From Monodelphis domestica (Eukaryota; Chordata; Mammalia; Didelphimorphia; Didelphidae), in the NCBI RefSeq assembly GCF_027887165.1, contig NC_077233.1, positions 180,939,207 through 181,003,206 on the forward strand: a DNA stretch of 64,000 bases, in the 5' to 3' direction. The notes under the pieces were generated by a model. It worked only from the letters and a program-made list of their open reading frames with translations, was not told the DNA's origin and made no database searches. This document shows, one piece after another, positions 23,734 to 33,480 of the stretch. The position numbers were made by a program, and so were the translations under genes. Every line of letters begins with the position of its first letter. The stretch's first letter is position 1.

Positions 23734-23737
23734 CTTG
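23734..23737. repeat. Target-site duplication CTTG (left)
   Basis: CTTG directly precedes the LTR start TGTTAC and is repeated at 33,216-33,219 directly after the other LTR. A 4-bp duplication is usual for class I (gamma-like) retroviruses. Confidence 0.9.
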
Positions 23738-24705
23738 TGTTACAAGGGAATCACTTTAAAAGACTGATATATATTAATTTAAGGTCGCCAAGGAATCAGC
23801 TATGTAATTCCTAAATGAAAAACTCAAGTCAGCCGTCAGCCTTTTTTGGAGTTTAATTACAATAGGAGCAAGAAAGGAATTAGAGATATATATAGAGAGA
23901 GAGAAAGGGGAGAGAAGGGAATAGGGCTTAAATACCCCTTCTGTTTAGGCTGGGCCAAAAGGCCCAAGCCCTTAGATAGCTGGGGCAAAGAAAAAGAGAT
24001 CAGTCCCTATTACTCACGTGTCCAAAATGGAGAAACAGTCTCAGAGGCCCCCACCTTCAGCTTCCTTCAGAGCAAGCTTCCTCAGAGCCCAGGAACCACA
24101 CCGACCAAAAACTCCACTCCCTCCCAGTCTCCAGACCCTCCTATCTTTAAGGACACCATCCAAGTTGCCTCCCCTCAGTCCTCACATCTACCAATCACTC
24201 TTCATCAATTTCCCTGTCAATGGAGGCTCTCGCTTAACCCAGGACCGCCCAGAGGTTTCTGGCTTTTGCACATGTCTGTTGAAGATCATATTTTTCAAAT
24301 GATTAAATCTTTACTCCTTTGTTACAGCCCTTTCTAAATCCTGTTAACTTGAGTATGGTAGAGATTGGAATAATTAAATTTTGATCTAGGCTGCAGCCCT
24401 TACTCAATCCTATTAGGACTGAATAGGGTGGAGATTTATTCCAAGTATCTCCATTGTATCAATTCTAAAATCAATCAAGACTCAAAGAAATTCCTGTTCT
24501 ATGCTTAAGCATAGGTCAAAGTCCTTTCCATTGTTCAGCAAAGGGTTTCTGTCCTAAAGTAATCTTAAGAAGGGAAGAGAAGGAACCTCCCATGCCAATG
24601 GGGTTCCCATTCCAATAGACTATCAGTAAGAAATTTTCCAAGTATGAAATATCCCAATGGTGAAATTTCCAACATTTACAAGTCTAAGGAAATTTGAGGT
24701 TTACA
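23738..24705 (-). repeat. 3' LTR of the young provirus
   Basis: 968 bp on the genomic + strand from TGTTAC to TTTACA, giving TG...CA ends. Nearly identical to 32,251-33,215, and clearly related to the solo LTR at 62,732-63,760. Confidence 0.97.
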
Positions 24706-24717
24706 ATCCCCCCTGAT
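24706..24717 (-). promoter_or_regulatory. Polypurine tract
   Basis: On the minus strand a GATCATCAGGGGGGAT run abuts the 3' LTR. Such a purine tract primes plus-strand DNA synthesis in retroviruses. The 15-bp junction sequence (24,702-24,716) recurs at 25,211-25,225. Confidence 0.85.
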
Positions 24718-26079
24718 GATCATTGGGAGACTAGTCTCCCCATTGATCATTTAACATAATCATTTTGTAGTTCTAAATTCACTTCTAACTAAAGATATAC
24801 ACAATATTCAATTTTCTAGGAGAAATTAGAATAGTGAGAGAGGAAATAGAAAAGAAAAGAAAGCAAAACCAATGTTTGCTAGGCGCATTGACAGAAAGCC
24901 AAATTAGGGGCAGTCCCTTTTGGCATAAATGTTACAATAAATGTTCAATCAAAAGTTCAGTCCAATCAATCACATCCAAAGTTCATTCTTGATCTTCTTG
25001 ATGAAGTGTAGGTTTTTCGGCATCTTTCTGCAACAGTTCATTCTCTGGATATAAAAGTTTCAAGCTTCTTTCTTGAAGATCTTTTCTCGAACAAAATCAA
25101 AATCTTTGAATTTTTTATAAAAGTAAAATCTTAAACAAAATTCTTGGATTTTTATAAAAATACAATCTCAAACAAAAAAAATTCAAAAATTCTTAGATTT
25201 TAAATTAAAATACAATCCCCCCTGAAGTAAGTATTTAAAAAATATATATATCAAGTTTAGCTCAGAATGCAATGTTCAGTTATGGGGGTGTATGTGTCAA
25301 TTATCAAAAGAATAGAAAAATAATCAAAAACATAAGAAAAATTCAAAATAGACCTTGTATAGGTCCAGTTTAAAGTAATTTCTATCCCACAAGTATGTAG
25401 GACAGAATGCAGTAATATTTCACTTAGCCATTTGTAGCCAAGACTACAGGAAGTTGCCATAATATAAGAAGGAAAGAATTAGAATTCTATTTTGATGGGG
25501 AAATGTCATTCCCTTGTCTGATTTTTTCCTCAGGGATATAGGGAGCCAGCATGATATTCAAGCTTTGTACTTGTTTGAGTATTTCGAAAAGAGTGTAGAT
25601 ACAAGGAAGTCCTACGACTTAAACATAAGTTAAGCGTCGCAACCTCGAGTCTCACTTTAATATTTCATGTGTGCTCTATTGGCACTATTCAGGTTTAGTC
25701 TGTGCTCCTTGTTTTTATCCCTTTTCCTGGAATCAGACACAAACATTAATCACAGTCCTATAATATTTTATCAATAAATGGCAGGTTCCCATAGTTTAAA
25801 GCTTTTAGGCATATATTGATATTATAGCAAGAGTATATATATTAACTTGTATTACTGCAGGGAAAAATATTAATATTAATTATGTGTACCTTCAGTACAA
25901 AAAATGAGAAAAAAAATCAAATATTCTGATAAAAAATAAAAGAAAAGAAATAAAAAATAAGAAAAAAATCAGTAATTCAATATATTCTTGAGAAAAAAAA
26001 ACAGCATCCATTTGTCTATGGATTATTATCTCCAATTCATATGATAAGATAGAGTCACAATTCATATGATAGGATAGAG
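24718..26079 (-). other. Env-less region between pol and 3' LTR
   Basis: About 1.36 kb, strongly AT-rich, where env would be expected. I see no signal peptide, SU/TM cleavage site, or immunosuppressive or CX6CC-like motif in any minus-strand frame. The longest frame (25,892-26,083, 63 codons) is low-complexity, Phe/Ile-rich, and overlaps the pol stop. It also holds an internal copy of the polypurine-tract motif at 25,211-25,225. Env was either deleted or never present in this lineage. Confidence 0.75.
25211..25225 (-). repeat. Internal copy of the polypurine-tract motif
   Basis: TACAATCCCCCCTGA on the + strand is identical to the LTR/tract junction at 24,702-24,716. It may be a central polypurine tract or a relic of a former LTR edge. 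Confidence 0.7.
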
Positions 26080-26083
26080 TCAA
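26034..26083 (-). repeat. 25-bp tandem duplication covering the pol stop
   Basis: 26,034-26,058 and 26,059-26,083 are direct repeats with one mismatch. The TGA that ends pol (26,080-26,082) lies in the copy proximal to pol. Confidence 0.85.
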
Positions 26084-29000
26084 TCAGTCTCAGCAGAAGA
26101 TGCTTTCTTCACATGTGAGCAGTGAATCCAAGAGTCTCTTTCTCCAATCTTTATAGATGTTGGAGTAGTTAATAATATTTGGAATGGTCCTTCCCATGAA
26201 GGTTCAGTTGCTCCAGTTCGCTTGAAATTCTTGATATAAACTTTATCTCCTGGGTTCAGGTCATGCAGAGAAAAGTCTAATGGTCCAGCTTGTACTGCAG
26301 CTCCGGATTCATGAAGTTCACGTAGTTTGTGCTGTAACTCCTGTATATAGGAAGCAATAGTAATATCTCCCCCTAATAGCGATGTATAAGCCGGGGAGAA
26401 AGGCTTAGCCTGTATAGGCGGATGTCCAAAAAGCATCTCAAACGGTGAAATATGTAAGTCTCCTCTAGGCCTGCTTCTAAGATAAAATAGGGCCAGAGGG
26501 AGAATTTCAGGCCATTTTAAATGGGTCTCAGTGCATAATTTGCCAATCATAGTCTTAAGTTCTTTATTCATCCTCTCCACTTGGCCTGAGCTCTGGGGGT
26601 GATATGGAACATGGAATTTTGGAGTTATCCCCAAGCAAGAATATATTTGATTTAAGACAGAATCGGTAAAATGACTCCCTCTATCGGAGTCAATACGTGC
26701 TGGTAGGCCAAAACGAGGAATAATTTCTTTTAAAAGTATCTTTGCAACAAAATCTGCTGTGGCTCGGGTCGTAGGAAATGCTTCCGGCCATCTGGTTAGT
26801 TGATCTACAATTACTAGACAAAATTTATAACGTCCAGCCTTTGGCATTGTTATGAAATCTATCTGTAGATGTTCAAAAGGTGTGTAAGCCAGAGGACGTC
26901 CCCCAAAGGCTTTTCCACGATATGCATGTTGGTTATATGCCTGGCAAATAGGGCAGGCTGAACATACTTTAGAGGCTACAGTAGTTATACCAGGGGCTAT
27001 CCATACTCTCTTGACAGAGTCCACGATGCCCTGGGTGCCAAAATGACCATTTTTATGAATAGATTGGCAAATTTGGTTATAGAAACTTCTAGGGAGCAGG
27101 GGTTTTCCTTCAGGTGACACCCATACTCCATTAATTTGTTTTGCTTTAAATTTTTGTTTCCATTTTTCCACTTCCTTTTCATTATAGGAGAGTGATAAAT
27201 TTAAATTATCAGTGGTTGTTGATGTTAAAATTAATCCAGGTCCTTCTATGGCTGCTAGTTTTGCAGCGGCATCTGCTCGGTCATTTCCTCTAGAGACAGG
27301 GTCAGAGCCACCTGTATGGGCAGAGCAATGAACTACAGCTAGGGCTTTAGGCAGTTTGAGAGCAGAAAGAACTTCATTAATAATTTCTGCATTAGCTATG
27401 GATTTTCCAGCTGAGGTTAAAAATCCTCTTTGGAGCCATAGCATCCCGACTGAGTGACAAATGCCGAAAGCATATCTAGAATCCGTATAAATTGTTGCCT
27501 TTTTATCCTTGGCAATTATACAAGCTTGTTTTAGAGCTATGAGTTCTGCTCCTTGAGCGCTAATGTTAGAAGGTAGTGAAGCTGACCATTCAGTGGCAAA
27601 TTCTGAGACTACGGCAGCTCCAGTGTAACGTATGCCATCCCTCATAAAAGAGGAACCATCGGTAAATAAAATCAGATCTGCATTGTCTAAGGGAGTGTCC
27701 AAGAGATTATCTCGAGGCTTTTCTGCCATGGACACTAATGTTTCACAGTTATGTAGTGGTTCTCCTGAAGTAGGTAAATCTGGAAGCAAGGTGGCAGGGT
27801 TAAGAGTTGAACAGCGTTTCAAGGTAATATTTTCACTATTTAATAAGGTTATTTCATACCTTGTAATTCTCTGATCCGAGAATGCCTGTGTTCTATGTTT
27901 TACCAATAATGCTTCAATCTCATGTGGGCACATTATTGTTAATGGACATCCCAATACTAAATCAACGGTTTTTGTTACTAGTAAGGCTGTAGCAGCTACT
28001 CCTCTAAGGCATGGTGGTGCTCCTGCTGCTACTGGGTCTAGTTGGGCAGAATAATAAGCAATTGGGCGCTGAGAAGGTCCCAAAGTCTGAGTTAACACAC
28101 CAGAGGCTACTCCTCTTCGCTCATGCACATATAAAGTAAATGGCTTGTTGTAATCTGGGATGCCTAGAGCAGGGGCAGACATGATAGCCTTTTTCAGATC
28201 CATTAGAGCTGACAAGTGTTCAGGCTCTAATTTGAGGGGTTCAGGAACCGAATCCTTTGTTAATGCTATAAGGGGTTTAGTGATTTCCCCATAGCAAGGA
28301 ATCCATTGTCTACAAAACCCTGTTGCTCCTAAAATTGCTCTCAGCTGTTTCTTAGTGGTAGGAGCACTCAATTTTTGAATGTTCTCAATTCGTTTTGGAG
28401 AAATATAACGAGCACCCGCAGTCAAGATGAATCCCAAATATTCTACTTTTTGGAGACACCATTGAACTTTATCCTTAGAGATTTTATGTCCTCTTTTGTG
28501 CAATTCCAAAAGAAGGTGTTTGCTATCTTCTTGACATGTTTTTGCATCTGTTGAAGCCAAGAGTAGATCATCTACATATTTGATTAATTTGCTATTTTTA
28601 AATGTTATATTGTCTGTGTCTTGGCTCAAAATTTGCTCAAATAAGCTCGGACTTTCGACATAACCCTGTGGCAGTCGACACCAGGTATTTTGTGAGCCCT
28701 TCCAGGTGAAAGCAAAAATATGCCTGGAGTTTTCATGTATTGGTATGGAAAAGAAAGCTGAACACAAGTCTACTACTGTAAAGTATGTAGCTGTGCTAGG
28801 AATAGATGAAATAATAGTATGTATGTTAGAAACTACGGAGTGTCTCTTTATAACGTGATTATTCACTGCCCTTAGATCCTGTACGAATCTATAGATGTGC
28901 TTGCCATCGGGTCCTTTTTTTGGTTTTTTAATTGGCAGGATGGGCGTGTTGTATTCAGATTTGCAAGGGATTATTATTCCCTGTTCTATTAATGAGTTAA

Positions 29001-29667
29001 TAACTGGTGTAATACCCTCAATTGCCTCCTTTGAGAGGGGATACTGAGGGATAGAAGGAGGTGGGCTAGATTTAGTTTTTATCTGCACAGGAACAGCAGA
29101 TTTAAGTAAGCCTACATCAGAAGAAGATGTGGCCCAAAGAGACTCCGGTATATCTTTAGGTATTTCAAAAATGGAAGGTTCTTTTGCCTCCTGGTTTTCC
29201 GAGAGAAGTACAGGGAGTAAATTTAAAGATTCCTCTGGTACTTCTAATGATAATGAGCCATCTGGGGAGCAGGTTATTGTGGCTCTGAGTTTGCATAGAA
29301 GGTCCCTCCCCAGCAAATTTAAAGGGGAGTCAGGCATCAAAAGGAAGGTGTGTTGTACCTCTAGGGGTCCTACAGACACCATTCTAGGAGGAAGTCTTTT
29401 AACTCTTTGGGTTATTCCTGATACTCCCATTACATTCTCTGAGCCAATAGAATAACATTGTAAATCAGGTGTTCTCTTTAATACAGACCAGGAAGCTCCG
29501 GTGTCTAATAGACAATCATAATAGGTGTTACCCACTTTTAAGGTAACATGGGGTTCATTAGTATGGGGAGGGCAGTGGATAGGGACAACGGGTAGTAGGA
29601 CATCAGGGTCTGGGAAATCAAAGGTTGTATCCTCTGATTCCTGTGCCCCAGCCCCCCCCGGGCACCA
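26080..29667 (-). CDS. pol: Pro-Pol: protease, RT, RNase H, integrase
   Basis: The frame is open from the TGA at 29,668-29,670 to the TGA at 26,080, about 1,195 residues. Numbering below starts at the GTG codon at 29,535. Protease: DTGAS at 11-15. RT: first Asp at 256 (VVDL), LPQG 288-291, YVDD 320-323. RNase H: Asp626 (FTDGS), Glu664, Asp685 (YTDSR), Asp752. Integrase: zinc-binding His827, His831, Cys861, Cys864; catalytic Asp893, Asp951, Glu987 with 35 residues between the last two; C-terminal WEGPF. The text before the protease (a TLKV block) resembles the gammaretroviral Pro start. It shares frame with gag, so expression must pass the TGA, by readthrough as in gammaretroviruses. No frameshift or nonsense codon; probably enzymatically competent, though unproven. 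Confidence 0.95.
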   Translation of the reverse strand, partial: WCPGGAGAQESEDTTFDFPDPDVLLPVVPIHCPPHTNEPHVTLKVGNTYYDCLLDTGASWSVLKRTPDLQCYSIGSENVMGVSGITQRVKRLPPRMVSVGPLEVQHTFLLMPDSPLNLLGRDLLCKLRATITCSPDGSLSLEVPEESLNLLPVLLSENQEAKEPSIFEIPKDIPESLWATSSSDVGLLKSAVPVQIKTKSSPPPSIPQYPLSKEAIEGITPVINSLIEQGIIIPCKSEYNTPILPIKKPKKGPDGKHIYRFVQDLRAVNNHVIKRHSVVSNIHTIISSIPSTATYFTVVDLCSAFFSIPIHENSRHIFAFTWKGSQNTWCRLPQGYVESPSLFEQILSQDTDNITFKNSKLIKYVDDLLLASTDAKTCQEDSKHLLLELHKRGHKISKDKVQWCLQKVEYLGFILTAGARYISPKRIENIQKLSAPTTKKQLRAILGATGFCRQWIPCYGEITKPLIALTKDSVPEPLKLEPEHLSALMDLKKAIMSAPALGIPDYNKPFTLYVHERRGVASGVLTQTLGPSQRPIAYYSAQLDPVAAGAPPCLRGVAATALLVTKTVDLVLGCPLTIMCPHEIEALLVKHRTQAFSDQRITRYEITLLNSENITLKRCSTLNPATLLPDLPTSGEPLHNCETLVSMAEKPRDNLLDTPLDNADLILFTDGSSFMRDGIRYTGAAVVSEFATEWSASLPSNISAQGAELIALKQACIIAKDKKATIYTDSRYAFGICHSVGMLWLQRGFLTSAGKSIANAEIINEVLSALKLPKALAVVHCSAHTGGSDPVSRGNDRADAAAKLAAIEGPGLILTSTTTDNLNLSLSYNEKEVEKWKQKFKAKQINGVWVSPEGKPLLPRSFYNQICQSIHKNGHFGTQGIVDSVKRVWIAPGITTVASKVCSACPICQAYNQHAYRGKAFGGRPLAYTPFEHLQIDFITMPKAGRYKFCLVIVDQLTRWPEAFPTTRATADFVAKILLKEIIPRFGLPARIDSDRGSHFTDSVLNQIYSCLGITPKFHVPYHPQSSGQVERMNKELKTMIGKLCTETHLKWPEILPLALFYLRSRPRGDLHISPFEMLFGHPPIQAKPFSPAYTSLLGGDITIASYIQELQHKLRELHESGAAVQAGPLDFSLHDLNPGDKVYIKNFKRTGATEPSWEGPFQILLTTPTSIKIGERDSWIHCSHVKKASSAETD

Positions 29668-29670
29668 TCA
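29650..29670 (-). promoter_or_regulatory. Candidate readthrough stop (TGA) before pro-pol
   Basis: TGA at 29,668-29,670 (minus) is followed by TGG and a GC-rich section where TGCCC can pair with GGGCA across a G-run, an island of high GC in an AT-rich element. In gammaretroviruses a stop between NC and protease, followed by a structured element, permits readthrough. Position just before the Pro-Pol frame fits that role. A pseudoknot was not modelled. Confidence 0.55.
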
Positions 29671-29796: not shown

Positions 29797-31083
29797 TTAA
29801 ATTTGAGCATTGTCATTAAATTCCCAATTCCTATTTCTATAATTCTGGTTTCTAAAGTTCTTATTTCTATATTCATTATAGTTATTTCCATAGTCATTAT
29901 TATAATTTCTAGAATTCTGGTTTCTATAACCATTATCATAATTTCTATAGTTATTATTTCTAAAACCATTATTAAACTGTGTATTCCTTCCAAACATCTT
30001 AAGAAAGGTTCTACATTCCATCATTTTGTGGCCCTTCTTCTCACAGAAGTGGCAAGTAATGGATTGATAATTGGATTTCTGGAGAGGGGCAATTGTCGTT
30101 GGTTCATTATCATGCCCACTTTCTAATTTAGTTATCCTATCTATTACACATCTCATTTTTTTCTTCATTTCCTCCATGTCATCATTATTCTCTTTCTCCT
30201 TTTCTTCGTTTCCCTTAAAAACATATATAGCTGTTTTTCGCAATTCTTCAAGGTCCATATCTGACCATCTTGGGCATTGTGTTTTAAAATAATTTTTAAT
30301 TACTTTGCAAGAATTGTTTACAAAGATTCTTCTAACTTGTCTTAAACTATTCTCTTTATTTAAGTCCCAATCTAAGTATCTGTCCCCAAACTCGATAATT
30401 CTGTCCATAAATCTGGAGGGTGTTTCTTTTTCCTTTTGCTTAATTTTTTCCAGTTCCATCCACTTATCTGTACTGTCCGCACATTCCTTCATGGCCGTGA
30501 GGATGGCCTCTCTACAACGGTATAGTTGTAGATAGTCCTCAGGATTATTATAGTCCCATTCGGGATCCTGAGATGGCCAATGTGCTGCATTACGCCCCCG
30601 GGTTTTGTTGACATGAGCAATTATTTTATTTTTTTCACATTCACTTAAAAAAGCCTGTAGTAAGCTCTCAACGTCCTTGTAAGACGGATTATACTGAAAA
30701 AATATGTCTCCCATCTTTTTTGTTACTAGAAAAGGATCTTGTTCATATGTGGGGATATTTCGTGTAAATTCATTTATTTCTTGGGGAGTAAACGGTATCC
30801 TATGTCTTAAAGTCACCACATCCCCATTTCGTCCTATTTCAGGTACTTCTCTTAGAGGAAACAGGCCTCTAGTTGGATTTTGCACCTGTGGGTCAGTTTG
30901 ACAAGGGCAGGTTTCTCTAGGAGGACAAGATCTCCCTTGCATTGGAATTTGGTTTTCTGTAGGAGAAGGAACATGAGAAGCTGGGATTGCAGGGGAAGGG
31001 TTTTGGGGATTAAATTCAGACAAGATTTGCATTACACGAGAGAAGCAGTCTGTTAACTGGGCTATAGGGAAGGTGTTTTCCAT
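29797..31083 (-). CDS. gag: Gag: p12-like, capsid and nucleocapsid
   Basis: 428 residues from an ATG at 31,083, only two codons after the stop of the upstream frame. Gag is the structural polyprotein. Residues 1-75 are Pro/Cys-rich and p12-like. PLREV at 76-80 marks a class I capsid N-terminus. Capsid runs to about 320, a charged Glu/Lys-rich helix lies at about 290-320, and one CCHC zinc knuckle (CX2CX4HX4C) is at 344-357. An Asn/Arg/Tyr-rich tail ends at TAA 29,797. Odd points: residue 2 is Glu, so there is no Met-Gly myristoylation signal, and no matrix domain of usual size precedes the p12-like part. The frame just upstream may supply that role. Confidence 0.93.
   Translation of the reverse strand: MENTFPIAQLTDCFSRVMQILSEFNPQNPSPAIPASHVPSPTENQIPMQGRSCPPRETCPCQTDPQVQNPTRGLFPLREVPEIGRNGDVVTLRHRIPFTPQEINEFTRNIPTYEQDPFLVTKKMGDIFFQYNPSYKDVESLLQAFLSECEKNKIIAHVNKTRGRNAAHWPSQDPEWDYNNPEDYLQLYRCREAILTAMKECADSTDKWMELEKIKQKEKETPSRFMDRIIEFGDRYLDWDLNKENSLRQVRRIFVNNSCKVIKNYFKTQCPRWSDMDLEELRKTAIYVFKGNEEKEKENNDDMEEMKKKMRCVIDRITKLESGHDNEPTTIAPLQKSNYQSITCHFCEKKGHKMMECRTFLKMFGRNTQFNNGFRNNNYRNYDNGYRNQNSRNYNNDYGNNYNEYRNKNFRNQNYRNRNWEFNDNAQI
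29800..29995 (-). repeat. Asn/Arg/Tyr-rich repeat region of nucleocapsid
   Basis: Imperfect short tandem repeats (variants of TTTCTATAATTCTGG and TTATTATAATTTCT on the + strand) encode about 60 residues built from RN, NY and YRN units after the zinc knuckle. Confidence 0.75.
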
Positions 31084-31089
31084 CTCTAT

Positions 31090-31743
31090 TTACGGGAAGG
31101 AAATTTCCTCATTCAAAGGTTCAGAAACAGGTCTGTTTCTGGTAGAGTGGGTGTTTGCCCATTGATCCTGTAAGAAACATTTTAGATCTTCTAATTGGGC
31201 TTGCATTTTATCCTCAATTTTTCCTATTTTATCTTCCATATCTCCCATTTTATCCTCAATATTTCCTATTTTATTCTCAATATTTCCTATTTTATCCTCA
31301 AGTTTTTCTATTTTATTCTCAATATTTCCTATTTTATCCTCAATTTTTTCTATTGTATCCTCAATTTTTTCTATTTTATCCTCAATTTTTTCTATTTTAT
31401 CCTCAATATTTTCTATTTTATCCTCAATATTTTCTATTTTATCCTCATTTTTTTCTATTTTATCCTCAACATTTTCTATTTTATCCTCAATATTTTCTAT
31501 TTTATCCTCATTTTGTTTTATTTTATCCTCATTTTGTTTTATTTTATCCTCATTTTGTTTTATTTTATCCTCATTTTGTTTTATTTTATCCTCAATATTT
31601 TTTATTTTTTCATCTCTAAATATAGTATTGAGGAGTACAAAAATGACAGTACCTATTAATATAAAAATTTGGAGGTATCCTTCATTCCTCAATGCCCCTA
31701 CTTCTTCAGCTGCCATATAATTGTCAAAGAATGTAGTACTCAT
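31090..31743 (-). CDS. Pre-gag membrane-anchored coiled-coil protein
   Basis: 217 residues from the ATG at 31,743, with A at -3. I read no other AUG on the minus strand from the LTR R region to here, so this is the first AUG of the genomic RNA. N-terminus about 23 residues, net acidic; one hydrophobic segment at about 24-43 (YLQIFILIG...NTIF); then Arg/Lys; then 19-20 uninterrupted heptads (units such as IEDKIEN and NEDKIKQ, Ile or Asn at one core site and Ile at the other) to about 181; then a short polar tail. More positive charge after the membrane segment predicts N-out/C-in, leaving the coil in the cytosol. Stop TAA at 31,090 is in the gag frame, 6 nt before the gag ATG. It occupies the place of matrix. 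No known family recognised. Capture of a host sequence is an alternative. Confidence 0.8.
   Translation of the reverse strand: MSTTFFDNYMAAEEVGALRNEGYLQIFILIGTVIFVLLNTIFRDEKIKNIEDKIKQNEDKIKQNEDKIKQNEDKIKQNEDKIENIEDKIENVEDKIEKNEDKIENIEDKIENIEDKIEKIEDKIEKIEDTIEKIEDKIGNIENKIEKLEDKIGNIENKIGNIEDKMGDMEDKIGKIEDKMQAQLEDLKCFLQDQWANTHSTRNRPVSEPLNEEISFP
31205..31620 (-). repeat. 21-bp minisatellite encoding heptads
   Basis: About twenty 21-bp units (+ strand variants of TTTTATCCTCAATATTTTCTA) keep perfect 3n spacing so each adds one heptad. Four near-identical NEDKIKQ units at 31,530-31,600 look like the most recent expansion. Confidence 0.95.
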
Positions 31744-31934
31744 TTTTATATGTATATTTTGTAATTTCACAAAACACGTGGGGAGCAGGGCAAAGCAACA
31801 AACTTTCCACAGGGTTTTTTTTTTTTAATCCAGGAAGTTGTTCCTTAAGGGAAAGGATATTTAGAAACAGTTCTTCCAGCCAGGACTTTAGAGTCCTGTT
31901 GCTGAGATTTAAAAACAGCTGTTTTCTGTCTATC

Positions 31935-32033
31935 AGAGTCACACAGCTGGGAAGTATCTGAGGTCCGATTTGAACCCAGGACCTTCTGCCTCTAGGGCTG
32001 GCTCTCAATCCGCTGAGCTACCCAGCTGTCCCT
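31935..32033 (-). repeat. tRNA-derived SINE head inside the viral leader
   Basis: On the minus strand: GGGACAGCTGGGTAGCTCAG, an A-box-like TAGCTCAGCGG, and a B-box-like GGTTCAAATCG, then the SINE body up to 'tgtgtgactct', where it stops. Well preserved compared with the old SINEs elsewhere. No target duplication seen. Confidence 0.8.
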
Positions 32034-32229
32034 TAAGATTAAAGGGAAGAAAAAGAAAAAACTGCTGATTCCAATTTAACTTAAGGAGAAAAGAGAAAAA
32101 GTTTTTTATACTCACGTGTTCTAGCAGCTGTGTCTTTAAGCCAAGTTTTTTGTTAAAAAAAAAGGACTAAGTGGTGAAACAGTATAGTAAAAAGGCAAGG
32201 AAAAAGTTTTATTGAGAGGATTCTTTAGA

Positions 32230-32247
32230 CTCCCGTGTGGTCAGCCA
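32230..32247 (-). promoter_or_regulatory. Primer-binding-site position
   Basis: Three nt after the LTR, the minus strand reads TGGCTGACCACACGGGAG. It begins TGG as retroviral primer sites do, but I could not match it to a tRNA 3' end from memory. Confidence 0.45.
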
Positions 32248-32364
32248 CAATGTTACAAGGGAATCACTTTAAAAGACTGATATATATTAATTTAAGGTCG
32301 CCAAGGAATCAGCTATGTAATTCCTAAATGAAAAACTCAAGTCAGCCGTCAGCCTTTTTTGGAG

Positions 32365-32370
32365 TTTAAT
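32365..32370 (-). terminator. LTR polyadenylation signal ATTAAA
   Basis: ATTAAA on the minus strand, downstream of the predicted transcription start, so in R or just before the cleavage site. The working copy for 3' end formation is the equivalent in the 3' LTR at about 23,854. Confidence 0.5.
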
Positions 32371-32437
32371 TACAATAGGAGCAAGAAAGGAATTAGAGAT
32401 ATATATAGAGAGAGAAAGGGGAGAGAAGGGAATAGGG

Positions 32438-32445
32438 CTTAAATA
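32438..32445 (-). promoter_or_regulatory. LTR TATA-like box
   Basis: TATTTAAG on the minus strand, also present at 23,927-23,934 in the 3' LTR and in the solo LTR near 62,965. Spacing to the ATTAAA about 70 nt downstream fits a short R region. Confidence 0.6.
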
Positions 32446-33215
32446 CCCCTTCTGTTTAGGCTGGGCCAAAAGGCCCAAGCCCTTAGATAGCTGGGGCAAA
32501 GAAAAGAGATCAGTCCCTATTACTCACGTGTCCAAAATGGAGAAACAGTCTCAGAGGCCCCCACCTTCAGCTTCCTTCAGAGCAAGCTTCCTCAGAGCCC
32601 AGGAACCACACCGACCAAAAACTCCACCCCCTCCCAGTCTCCAGACCCTCCTATCTTTAAGGACACCATCCAAGTTGCCTCCCCTCAGTCCTCACATCTA
32701 CCAATCACTCTTCATCAATTTCCCTGTCAATGGAGGCTCTCGCTTAACCCAGGACCGCCCAGAGGTTTCTGGCTTTTGCACATGTCTGTTGAAGATCATA
32801 TTTTTCAAATGATTAAATCTTTACTCCTTTGTTACAGCCCTTTCTAAATCCTGTTAACTTGAGTATGGTAGAGATTGGAATAATTAAATTTTGATCTAGG
32901 CTGCAGCCCTTACTCAATCCTATTAGGACTGAATAGGGTGGAGATTTATTCCAAGTATCTCCATTGTATCAATTCTAAAATCAATCAAGACTCAAAGAAA
33001 TTCCTGTTCTATGCTTAAGCATAGGTCAAAGTCCTTTCCATTGTTCAGCAAAGGGTTTCTGTCCTAAAGTAATCTTAAGAAGGGAAGAGAAGGAACCTCC
33101 CATGCCAATGGGGTTCCCATTCCAATAGACTATCAGTAAGAAATTTTCCAAGTATGAAATATCCCAATGGTGAAATTTCCAACATTTACAAGTCTAAGGA
33201 AATTTGAGGTTTACA

Positions 33216-33480
33216 CTTGCCTCATTTTTTTAGTAAAGTAAGATGAGAGAATCCTCATCTGAGGGAAAGATGGAGGAGTAGATGTTAGAGGCTTAGGGAG
33301 AGAAGAGCTAGTTTGGAATAGATGGGAATTAGAGAATCATTTAAGGAGGAATACAAGAATTACAATGCTGCAGTGAGGGTCAACTTGAAATTGGATAATA
33401 AGAACTTATAATATATCTGGGCAAAAAGAGTAAGAAACAACTTTGCTAATTGTTTTACCCTCCTATGTACATCAGTCTCC
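33216..33480 (-). repeat. L2 continuation after the provirus, with CTTG duplication
   Basis: CTTG (33,216-33,219) is the right target duplication. The antisense L2 body of 21,775-23,733 continues ('gagagaagagctagtttgg'), confirming the empty-site structure. 33,481-33,865 shows nothing assignable except a TA repeat at 33,598-33,640. Confidence 0.7.

What the first reader, a model, noticed from the sequence alone, without database searches (positions are those of the whole stretch)
31090..31743. Membrane-anchored coiled-coil protein encoded ahead of gag in a young provirus
Seen: the first AUG after the LTR R region opens a 217-codon frame with one hydrophobic segment and about 19-20 unbroken heptads, ending 6 nt before the gag ATG. 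Known: class I Gag usually begins with a myristoylated matrix; here Gag has Glu at position 2 and only about 75 residues before the PLREV capsid start. Inference: this frame supplies a transmembrane anchor and oligomerising rod in place of matrix. More positive charge after the membrane segment suggests the coil faces the cytosol, where Gag assembles. I know of no described retrovirus with this layout.
Basis: partly seen in the sequence, partly recalled or inferred. Interest (0 to 1): 0.92.

Follow-up and report, generated by a model that had tools for sequence, protein, structure and literature searches.

The report
Retroviral Gag with transmembrane coiled-coil front
In the opossum genome, many virus-like elements make their particle protein Gag with a built-in membrane anchor and a coiled-coil rod where most retroviruses carry a matrix domain; the copy in this window only looks like two genes because a stop codon cuts that one protein in two.

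Summary
The frame exists, on the minus strand (31743 to 31090): 217 codons, one hydrophobic segment, 19-20 heptads made by a 21-bp tandem repeat, ending 6 nt before the gag ATG. It is not a separate gene. In 60 of 60 sampled sister copies in the same genome (Monodelphis domestica) a sense codon stands where this copy has its stop, and database relatives carry segment and Gag as one protein. So the frame is the N-terminal part of Gag: transmembrane helix, coiled coil, linker, gamma-type capsid, zinc knuckle, without a recognisable matrix domain or an N-myristoylation glycine in this copy. A second opossum family (Gag about 43% identical) has the same layout with a different coil and no Met between coil and capsid in 17 of 17 readable loci, so there the anchored form is the only evident Gag. 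In the first family coil length differs by whole heptads (about 1 to 20). No env was found in the copies looked at. Most likely a class I element that holds Gag on an internal membrane through its own anchor and oligomerises it with the coil, comparable in function to IAP Gag. Topology and function are inferred; dN/dS was inconclusive.

The parts
32251..33215 (-). 5' LTR of the provirus
   Evidence: 99.59% identical to the 3' LTR over 968 columns (1 mismatch, 3 gap positions)
23738..24705 (-). 3' LTR
33216..33219 (-). 4-bp target-site duplication CAAG, upstream copy (downstream copy 23734-23737)
31744..32250 (-). leader without any ATG; contains a tRNA-derived SINE-like piece at about 31930-32032
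   Evidence: SINE recognised by eye, not by a call
31090..31743 (-). the finding: 217-codon frame, N-terminal part of the family's Gag (TM + coiled coil + linker)
31618..31674 (-). predicted transmembrane segment, residues 24-42
31205..31608 (-). 21-bp tandem repeat, 19.2 copies, coding for the heptads
31090..31092 (-). stop codon seen only in this copy among those sampled; splits the frame from gag
   Evidence: sense codon in 60 of 60 sampled other copies
29797..31083 (-). rest of Gag in the same reading frame, from the internal ATG (31083-31081) to a second stop (29799-29797) at which relative P0003 reads on
30283..30771 (-). capsid match, Gag_p30
   Evidence: E 1.1e-13; solved chains labelled gag polyprotein or capsid protein p30
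30013..30054 (-). CCHC zinc knuckle of nucleocapsid
   Evidence: seen in the translation
29668..29670 (-). in-frame stop between gag and pol; relative P0003 also ends here
26080..29667 (-). pro-pol frame: RVP, RT, RNase H, integrase, MLVIN_C
24706..26079 (-). region between pol and 3' LTR without an env-sized frame (longest frame lying wholly in it 73 aa)

Best explanation
The frame is the N-terminal part of Gag of an opossum class I (gamma-like) endogenous retrovirus family; in the window copy a stop codon splits it from the rest. Shown: in sister copies one frame encodes TM segment, coiled coil, linker and the start of Gag, and database relatives continue into a gamma-type CA and zinc-knuckle NC; a second family has the same order with a different coil. 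Inferred: the nascent chain is put into the ER or another membrane as a single-pass protein with N terminus out and the coil plus CA in the cytosol. The coil then bundles Gag (Ile at a, Ile or Asn at d, complementary e/g charges suggest a parallel, possibly trimeric bundle) and spaces the capsid from the membrane, so that anchor and coil together do what matrix with its myristate does elsewhere. No env was seen, so the likely life style is intracellular retrotransposition. Coil length changes by slippage of 21-bp units, which keeps the frame.
For: Fusion: P0003 (650 aa, 8 member sequences, coil plus Gag_p30 plus zinc knuckle) and P0005 (303 aa, TM plus short coil plus CA) are M. domestica proteins with segment and Gag in one chain; of 150 scored copies the window alone has a 244-aa frame; the others report 312-826 aa, and 133 of 150 are 600 aa or more (recounted by hand; the script held 149 of the 150 values, 132 of them 600 or more, and the one left out is 725); sense codon at the junction in 60 of 60 sampled copies; of 18 loci picked through the P0007 query (matches Gag start and capsid, not the coil) and for varied frame length, 13 keep TM, coil and Gag start in one open frame; second family, 17 of 20 loci open from the first Met through TM and coil to the PLRE capsid motif; 0 of 17 have a Met between coil and capsid. 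No MA family listed for P0002, P0003, P0005, P0006, P0007, nor among the 25 of 140 families shown for P0001. Array lengths 1.1 to 20.1 heptads in 75 of 79 copies measured, all whole heptads apart. Flank charges: 15 residues before/after the TM are -2/+1 (window), -1/+1 (P0005), -2/+3 (P0006). No env: the stretch from pol end to LTR was in view in the window and in L128-L131, partly in L127 and L132; no env profile in 18 frames scanned there and in L133 (one frame antisense, one the integrase end).
Against: dN/dS does not show purifying selection on the TM/coil: family 1 N-terminus 1.23 (bootstrap 0.51-4.30), linker 1.02, start of Gag 1.00; family 2 N-terminus 0.75 (0.49-1.21), coil 0.72 (0.46-1.19); only the family-2 Pro-rich linker is below 1 (0.61, 0.39-0.96). 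Among 59 near-identical copies pN/pS is 0.67 (N-terminus), 0.52 (coil), 0.17 (linker), 1.13 (Gag) from few variants. Copies drift neutrally after insertion, which blurs this. The charge difference in family 1 is small, and family-2 loci such as L085 have a second, shorter hydrophobic stretch before the TM, so a hairpin is possible. The AlphaFold model of P0006 is poor (mean pLDDT 43, 5 sequences). P0003 starts inside the coil and lacks the TM. More distant, decayed P0007-like copies show no clear TM/coil match (10 loci). 5 of 18 copies are broken in this region. Only one genome; no expression data. Copies were ranked by score, which favours intact ones.
Confidence: 0.72

Rival explanations
1. 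Separate upstream gene: the 217-aa protein is made on its own and recruits a free Gag to membranes.
For: In the window copy the frame has its own stop and a new ATG follows 6 nt later.
Against: Sense codon in 60 of 60 sampled copies; fused database proteins; no Met between coil and capsid in 17 of 17 family-2 loci.
Confidence: 0.03
2. Glyco-Gag-like extension: two products, a membrane-anchored long form and an ordinary short Gag from the internal ATG, the long form being accessory.
For: In family 1 the internal Met is kept (74 of 75 copies read, of 78 loci) in a favourable context, ATAGAGATGG in 72. Glyco-Gag is likewise an in-frame N-terminal extension of a class I Gag (PMC3423011, passages).
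Against: Family 2 lacks such a Met in 17 of 17 loci, and L090 has none after the TM before the capsid. The long form starts at an AUG, not CUG. A short form would begin Met-Glu and have no matrix and no myristate. The predicted topology is opposite to type II glyco-Gag.
Confidence: 0.15
3. Leader or signal segment whose coil is only a neutral 21-bp minisatellite; membrane targeting matters, the coil does not.
For: Copies with about one array heptad (L107, L112, L116, L117) have Gag frames of 565-595 aa open. Differences between units are mostly nonsynonymous (3 synonymous, 48 not, which also counts one off-register unit and repeats inherited by duplication).
Against: Short copies still keep the coil-forming MQAQLEDLK-type end. 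Family 2 has a long coil of different sequence in the same place. Core position a is I/M in 20 of 20 and e/g charges are kept.
Confidence: 0.15
4. Chance reading frame over a simple repeat.
For: Tandem 21-mers stay open easily; three plus-strand frames are open too.
Against: Unique N-terminus, linker and fusion to Gag kept in many copies, and the same layout in a second family.
Confidence: 0.01

Closest known systems
Intracisternal A particle (IAP) Gag of mouse, class II (class recalled)
   Same: Gag brought to the ER by the signal recognition particle (Fehrmann 2003, seen only as a title in the reference list of PMC3945221); most IAPs lack env and live inside the cell at high copy number (PMC6466679, passages)
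   Different: IAP is betaretrovirus-like and I know of no heptad array in it (both recalled). Here the capsid and pol are gamma-like and a long coil follows the anchor
Gammaretroviral glyco-Gag
   Same: in-frame N-terminal extension of a class I Gag that brings it into a membrane (PMC3423011, passages)
   Different: glyco-Gag starts at CUG, is type II and accompanies a separate Pr65 Gag; here AUG start, N-out predicted, and family 2 offers no evident separate short Gag start
Foamy virus Gag
   Same: N-terminal coiled coil dimerises Gag; no homology to orthoretroviral matrix (PMC7828637, passages; PMC3705266, passages)
   Different: foamy Gag needs the Env leader peptide for budding; its capsid is not gamma p30 (recalled)
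Gammaretrovirus Gag (MLV type)
   Same: Gag_p30 capsid, PLRE start, one CCHC knuckle, in-frame stop before pol, MLV-type integrase end
   Different: no Gag_MA match and no Gly at position 2 in the window copy; TM plus coil instead
pre-gag ORF of HERV-T / pre-gag region of HERV-H
   Same: coding or variable sequence between LTR and gag in class I elements (PMC5388530, passage; PMC3036903, passages)
   Different: there described as a 5' pre-gag ORF or as a region not associated with a viral protein; here continuous with Gag

Membership tests
Class I (gamma-like) endogenous retrovirus | gamma-type capsid and pol | tested here: met
   Gag_p30 E 1.1e-13, MLVIN_C E 1e-15 and other pol domains; solved chains labelled gag or capsid p30. 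No pol tree was made
Class I (gamma-like) endogenous retrovirus | 4-bp target-site duplication, paired LTRs | tested here: met
   CAAG on both sides; LTRs 99.59% identical. That 4 bp is typical is recalled
Gammaretrovirus Gag (MLV type) | N-terminal matrix domain with myristoylation glycine | tested here: not met
   no Gag_MA for P0002, P0003, P0005, P0006, P0007, nor among the 25 of 140 families shown for P0001; the window copy starts MST and family-2 copies MWLQ; of the copies printed, L122 alone starts Met-Gly. Sequence profiles only, no usable fold
Glyco-Gag | in-frame N-terminal membrane extension of Gag | tested here: met
Glyco-Gag | non-AUG start plus separate downstream Gag AUG | tested here: not met
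   AUG start in both families; no Met between coil and capsid in 17 of 17 family-2 loci; family 1 does have an internal AUG
Glyco-Gag | type II topology | tested here: inconclusive
   flank charges favour N-out; no topology predictor or experiment
IAP-like ER-targeted Gag | SRP-dependent ER insertion of Gag | not testable with these tools
   hydrophobic segment only
IAP-like ER-targeted Gag | class II (betaretrovirus-like) Gag/pol | tested here: not met
   gamma-type CA and integrase end
IAP-like ER-targeted Gag | env absent | tested here: met
   pol end to LTR in view in the window and L128-L131, partly in L127 and L132; L133 matched neither pol end nor LTR and says nothing; 18 frames without env profile. 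Other copies not examined
Foamy virus Gag | N-terminal coiled coil without orthoretroviral matrix | tested here: met
Foamy virus Gag | spumavirus Gag sequence | tested here: not met
   Gag_p30 is the only retroviral Gag family listed; other listed families, some baculoviral, are coiled-coil matches

The most novel reading that the evidence does not exclude
A retroviral lineage has replaced the matrix domain by an integral membrane anchor plus a modular coiled-coil rod, so that Gag itself is a transmembrane protein; the rod's length evolves by adding or losing whole heptads and sets oligomerisation and the distance between membrane and capsid, and this env-less design let the elements multiply in the opossum.
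Probability: 0.5. Interest if true: 0.78.

Novelty: new variant of a known kind. Interest (0 to 1): 0.62.

Why it matters
Matrix and myristate are textbook features of orthoretroviral assembly; IAP, glyco-Gag and foamy viruses each break part of the rule. A class I Gag with its own transmembrane anchor and a tandem heptad rod, in two families with different coils, would show that matrix can be swapped out entirely and would offer a natural series of rod lengths (about 1 to 20 heptads) for asking what distance and multimerisation matter for assembly. It also warns that a 'pre-gag ORF' read from one copy can be a split Gag.

Tried and rejected
Separate-gene reading: rejected by copy comparison. 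Chance ORF: rejected. Selection test by dN/dS within the array and across copies: inconclusive; the ratios used blocks without gap alignment and are superseded. Simulation of frame and hydrophobicity drift between two family-2 N-termini (34 of 63 residues identical): 1.2% or 5.4% of runs keep both an open frame and a strong TM, depending on the start sequence: weak support. Structure: one AlphaFold job, low confidence, so no fold search was made. Solved structures: gag/capsid chains for Gag, nothing for a family-2 N-terminal stretch. Viral contigs: no relative. Phage collection: no match. The genome search for Gag_MA (PF01140) never ran. The first env check scanned one antisense frame of L130 by mistake; one search added the sense frames. 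Papers: searches found no paper holding the terms, 77 only two off-topic ones; so 'not described' rests on those, on listings 31, 34 and 40, and on recall, in an open-licence library only.

Full report
What is there. The provirus lies on the minus strand between LTRs at 32251-33215 (5') and 23738-24705 (3'), which differ by 1 mismatch and 3 gap positions in 968 columns, with CAAG duplications outside. The finding's coordinates hold, minus strand, a 217-codon frame: about 23 N-terminal residues, a hydrophobic segment (residues 24-42), 19-20 heptads encoded by a 21-bp tandem repeat at 31205-31608, and a short linker. Its stop is followed by 6 nt and the gag ATG, in the same reading frame. Gag matches Gag_p30 and the pol frame carries protease, RT, RNase H, integrase and MLVIN_C. 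Between pol and the 3' LTR no frame lying wholly inside exceeds 73 aa.

It is part of Gag. Searching the protein collection with the window's Gag gave five relatives; the four named ones are from Monodelphis domestica. P0003 (650 aa) and P0005 (303 aa) carry coil or TM-plus-coil and Gag as one chain. The window's own genome (3.59 Gb; contig C1 has the same length, 760,810,273, as the contig listed for P0005) was searched with the 217 residues: 150 of 41,259 first-look candidates were scored. My count from that listing: the window alone has a 244-aa open frame, the other 149 report 312 to 826 aa, and 133 of 150 have 600 aa or more (script check on 149 of the 150 values); 1 of 150 has a stop inside the matched stretch. 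I fetched about 1.25 kb around 60 of the other 149 copies. At the window's stop position 60 of 60 have a sense codon, and 60 of 60 keep the internal Met. One of these, L010, was fetched 20 bases short at its start, so it counts for the junction but not for the N-terminus; it was misplaced. The split is thus seen only in the window copy. The window has a second stop at 29799-29797 where P0003 reads on; the stop before pol (29670-29668) coincides with the end of P0003.

The sample above favours intact, long-coil copies. I therefore took 18 loci through the P0007 query, which matches the Gag start and capsid but not the coil (20 fetched, L125 and L126 are P0007-like and were set apart), chosen for varied frame lengths: 13 of 18 keep TM, coil and the Gag start in one open frame, 5 do not (L108, L113, L115, L118, L120). 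Array length between the TM and the MQAQ motif was measurable in 75 of 79 (window, 60, 18): 1.1 (5 copies), 2.1 (1), 3.1 (2), 11.1 (1), 13.1 (2), 16.1 (1), 18.1 (1), 19.1 (61), 20.1 (1) heptads, always whole heptads apart. Slippage by 21-bp units explains this.

A second family. P0006 (610 aa, 43% identical where it aligns) has hits across the genome (165 matches, 72 of 36,652 candidates scored). I fetched 20 of these loci. In 17 of 20 one frame runs from Met through a hydrophobic segment, a long coil of quite different sequence, and a Pro-rich linker to the PLRE capsid motif; L083, L088 and L095 did not give the full pattern (L095's stretch ends before the capsid motif). None of the 17 has a Met between coil and capsid (for L092, whose coil end the script missed, from its listed Met positions). 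So there Gag can start only within or before the coil, and in L090 only before the TM. This makes the anchored form the Gag itself, not an accessory like glyco-Gag. Older P0007-like relatives show no clear TM/coil match (10 loci compared, one weak linker match).

How it may work. Flank charges put the N terminus outside and the coil inside (window -2/+1, P0005 -1/+1, P0006 -2/+3), but only modestly in family 1. Ile at a, Ile at d with Asn at d in five heptads, Glu at e and Lys at g point to a parallel bundle; that Ile at a and d favours trimers is recalled, and Asn at d is described as a recurrent core layer in trimeric autotransporter coils (PMC4786415, passage). The anchor would tether Gag to an internal membrane, the coil would cluster it, and the linker would lead to the capsid. 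Env: in the window and in L128-L131 the stretch from pol end to LTR was in view, in L127 and L132 the part next to the LTR; L133 matched neither and is not counted. In the seven fetched stretches 18 frames were scanned and none matched an env family; one was antisense, one was the integrase end. This fits intracellular retrotransposition, as for IAP (PMC6466679, passages).

What speaks against or stays open. dN/dS does not show selection on TM or coil: family 1 N-terminus 1.23 (0.51-4.30), linker 1.02 (0.40-3.07), Gag start 1.00 (0.32-3.65); family 2 N-terminus 0.75 (0.49-1.21), coil 0.72 (0.46-1.19), linker 0.61 (0.39-0.96), capsid start 0.27 (about 0-1.47) (identical sequences removed). Among 59 near-identical copies pN/pS was 0.67, 0.52, 0.17 and 1.13 for N-terminus, coil, linker and Gag start. 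Inside the array, differences from the commonest unit are 3 synonymous and 48 not, against 19% synonymous expected; related units are counted repeatedly and one off-register unit is included. The structure model is poor (mean pLDDT 43), though it draws helices at 35-78 and 88-183 and no long element at 184-318. P0003 lacks the TM. No expression evidence was available, and only one eukaryotic genome.

Compared with the known. Closest in function is IAP Gag (ER-targeted, env-less), but that is class II (recalled). Closest in position is glyco-Gag (PMC3423011, passages), but with CUG start, type II topology and a separate Pr65. Closest in architecture is foamy virus Gag, a coiled coil without orthoretroviral matrix that needs the Env leader (PMC3705266; PMC7828637; passages). 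A marsupial ERV survey (PMC11334065) does not use the words coiled, transmembrane, matrix or myristoyl in its main text. Full-text searches for the combination found nothing relevant. I file it as a new variant of a known kind: a class I element with a matrix-less, membrane-anchored, coiled-coil Gag.

Noticed in passing
window 31930-32032: The proviral leader holds a tRNA-derived, SINE-like stretch between LTR and gag (recognised by eye); whether other copies carry it was not checked.
   Followed up: no
window 29827-29974: The C-terminal end of Gag after the zinc knuckle is an Asn/Arg/Tyr-rich tail with several overlapping tandem repeats, a second repeat-built stretch in the same protein.
   Followed up: no
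window 29797-29799: Second stop inside Gag of this copy at a place where relative P0003 reads on, about 43 codons before the gag/pol stop.
   Followed up: partly
L079-L082: In the second family the coil is also repeat-built: a 15-residue WGEIKTFLDEI-type module in about 3 to 4 copies.
   Followed up: partly
L122: One long-coil copy begins Met-Gly instead of Met-Ser; chance or a gained acylation site was not examined.
   Followed up: no
L129:2580-3200: A 207-codon open frame with coiled-coil profile matches below Pfam cut-offs runs to the end of the fetched stretch, beyond the LTR match at 2064-2207, so probably outside the element; not identified.
   Followed up: no
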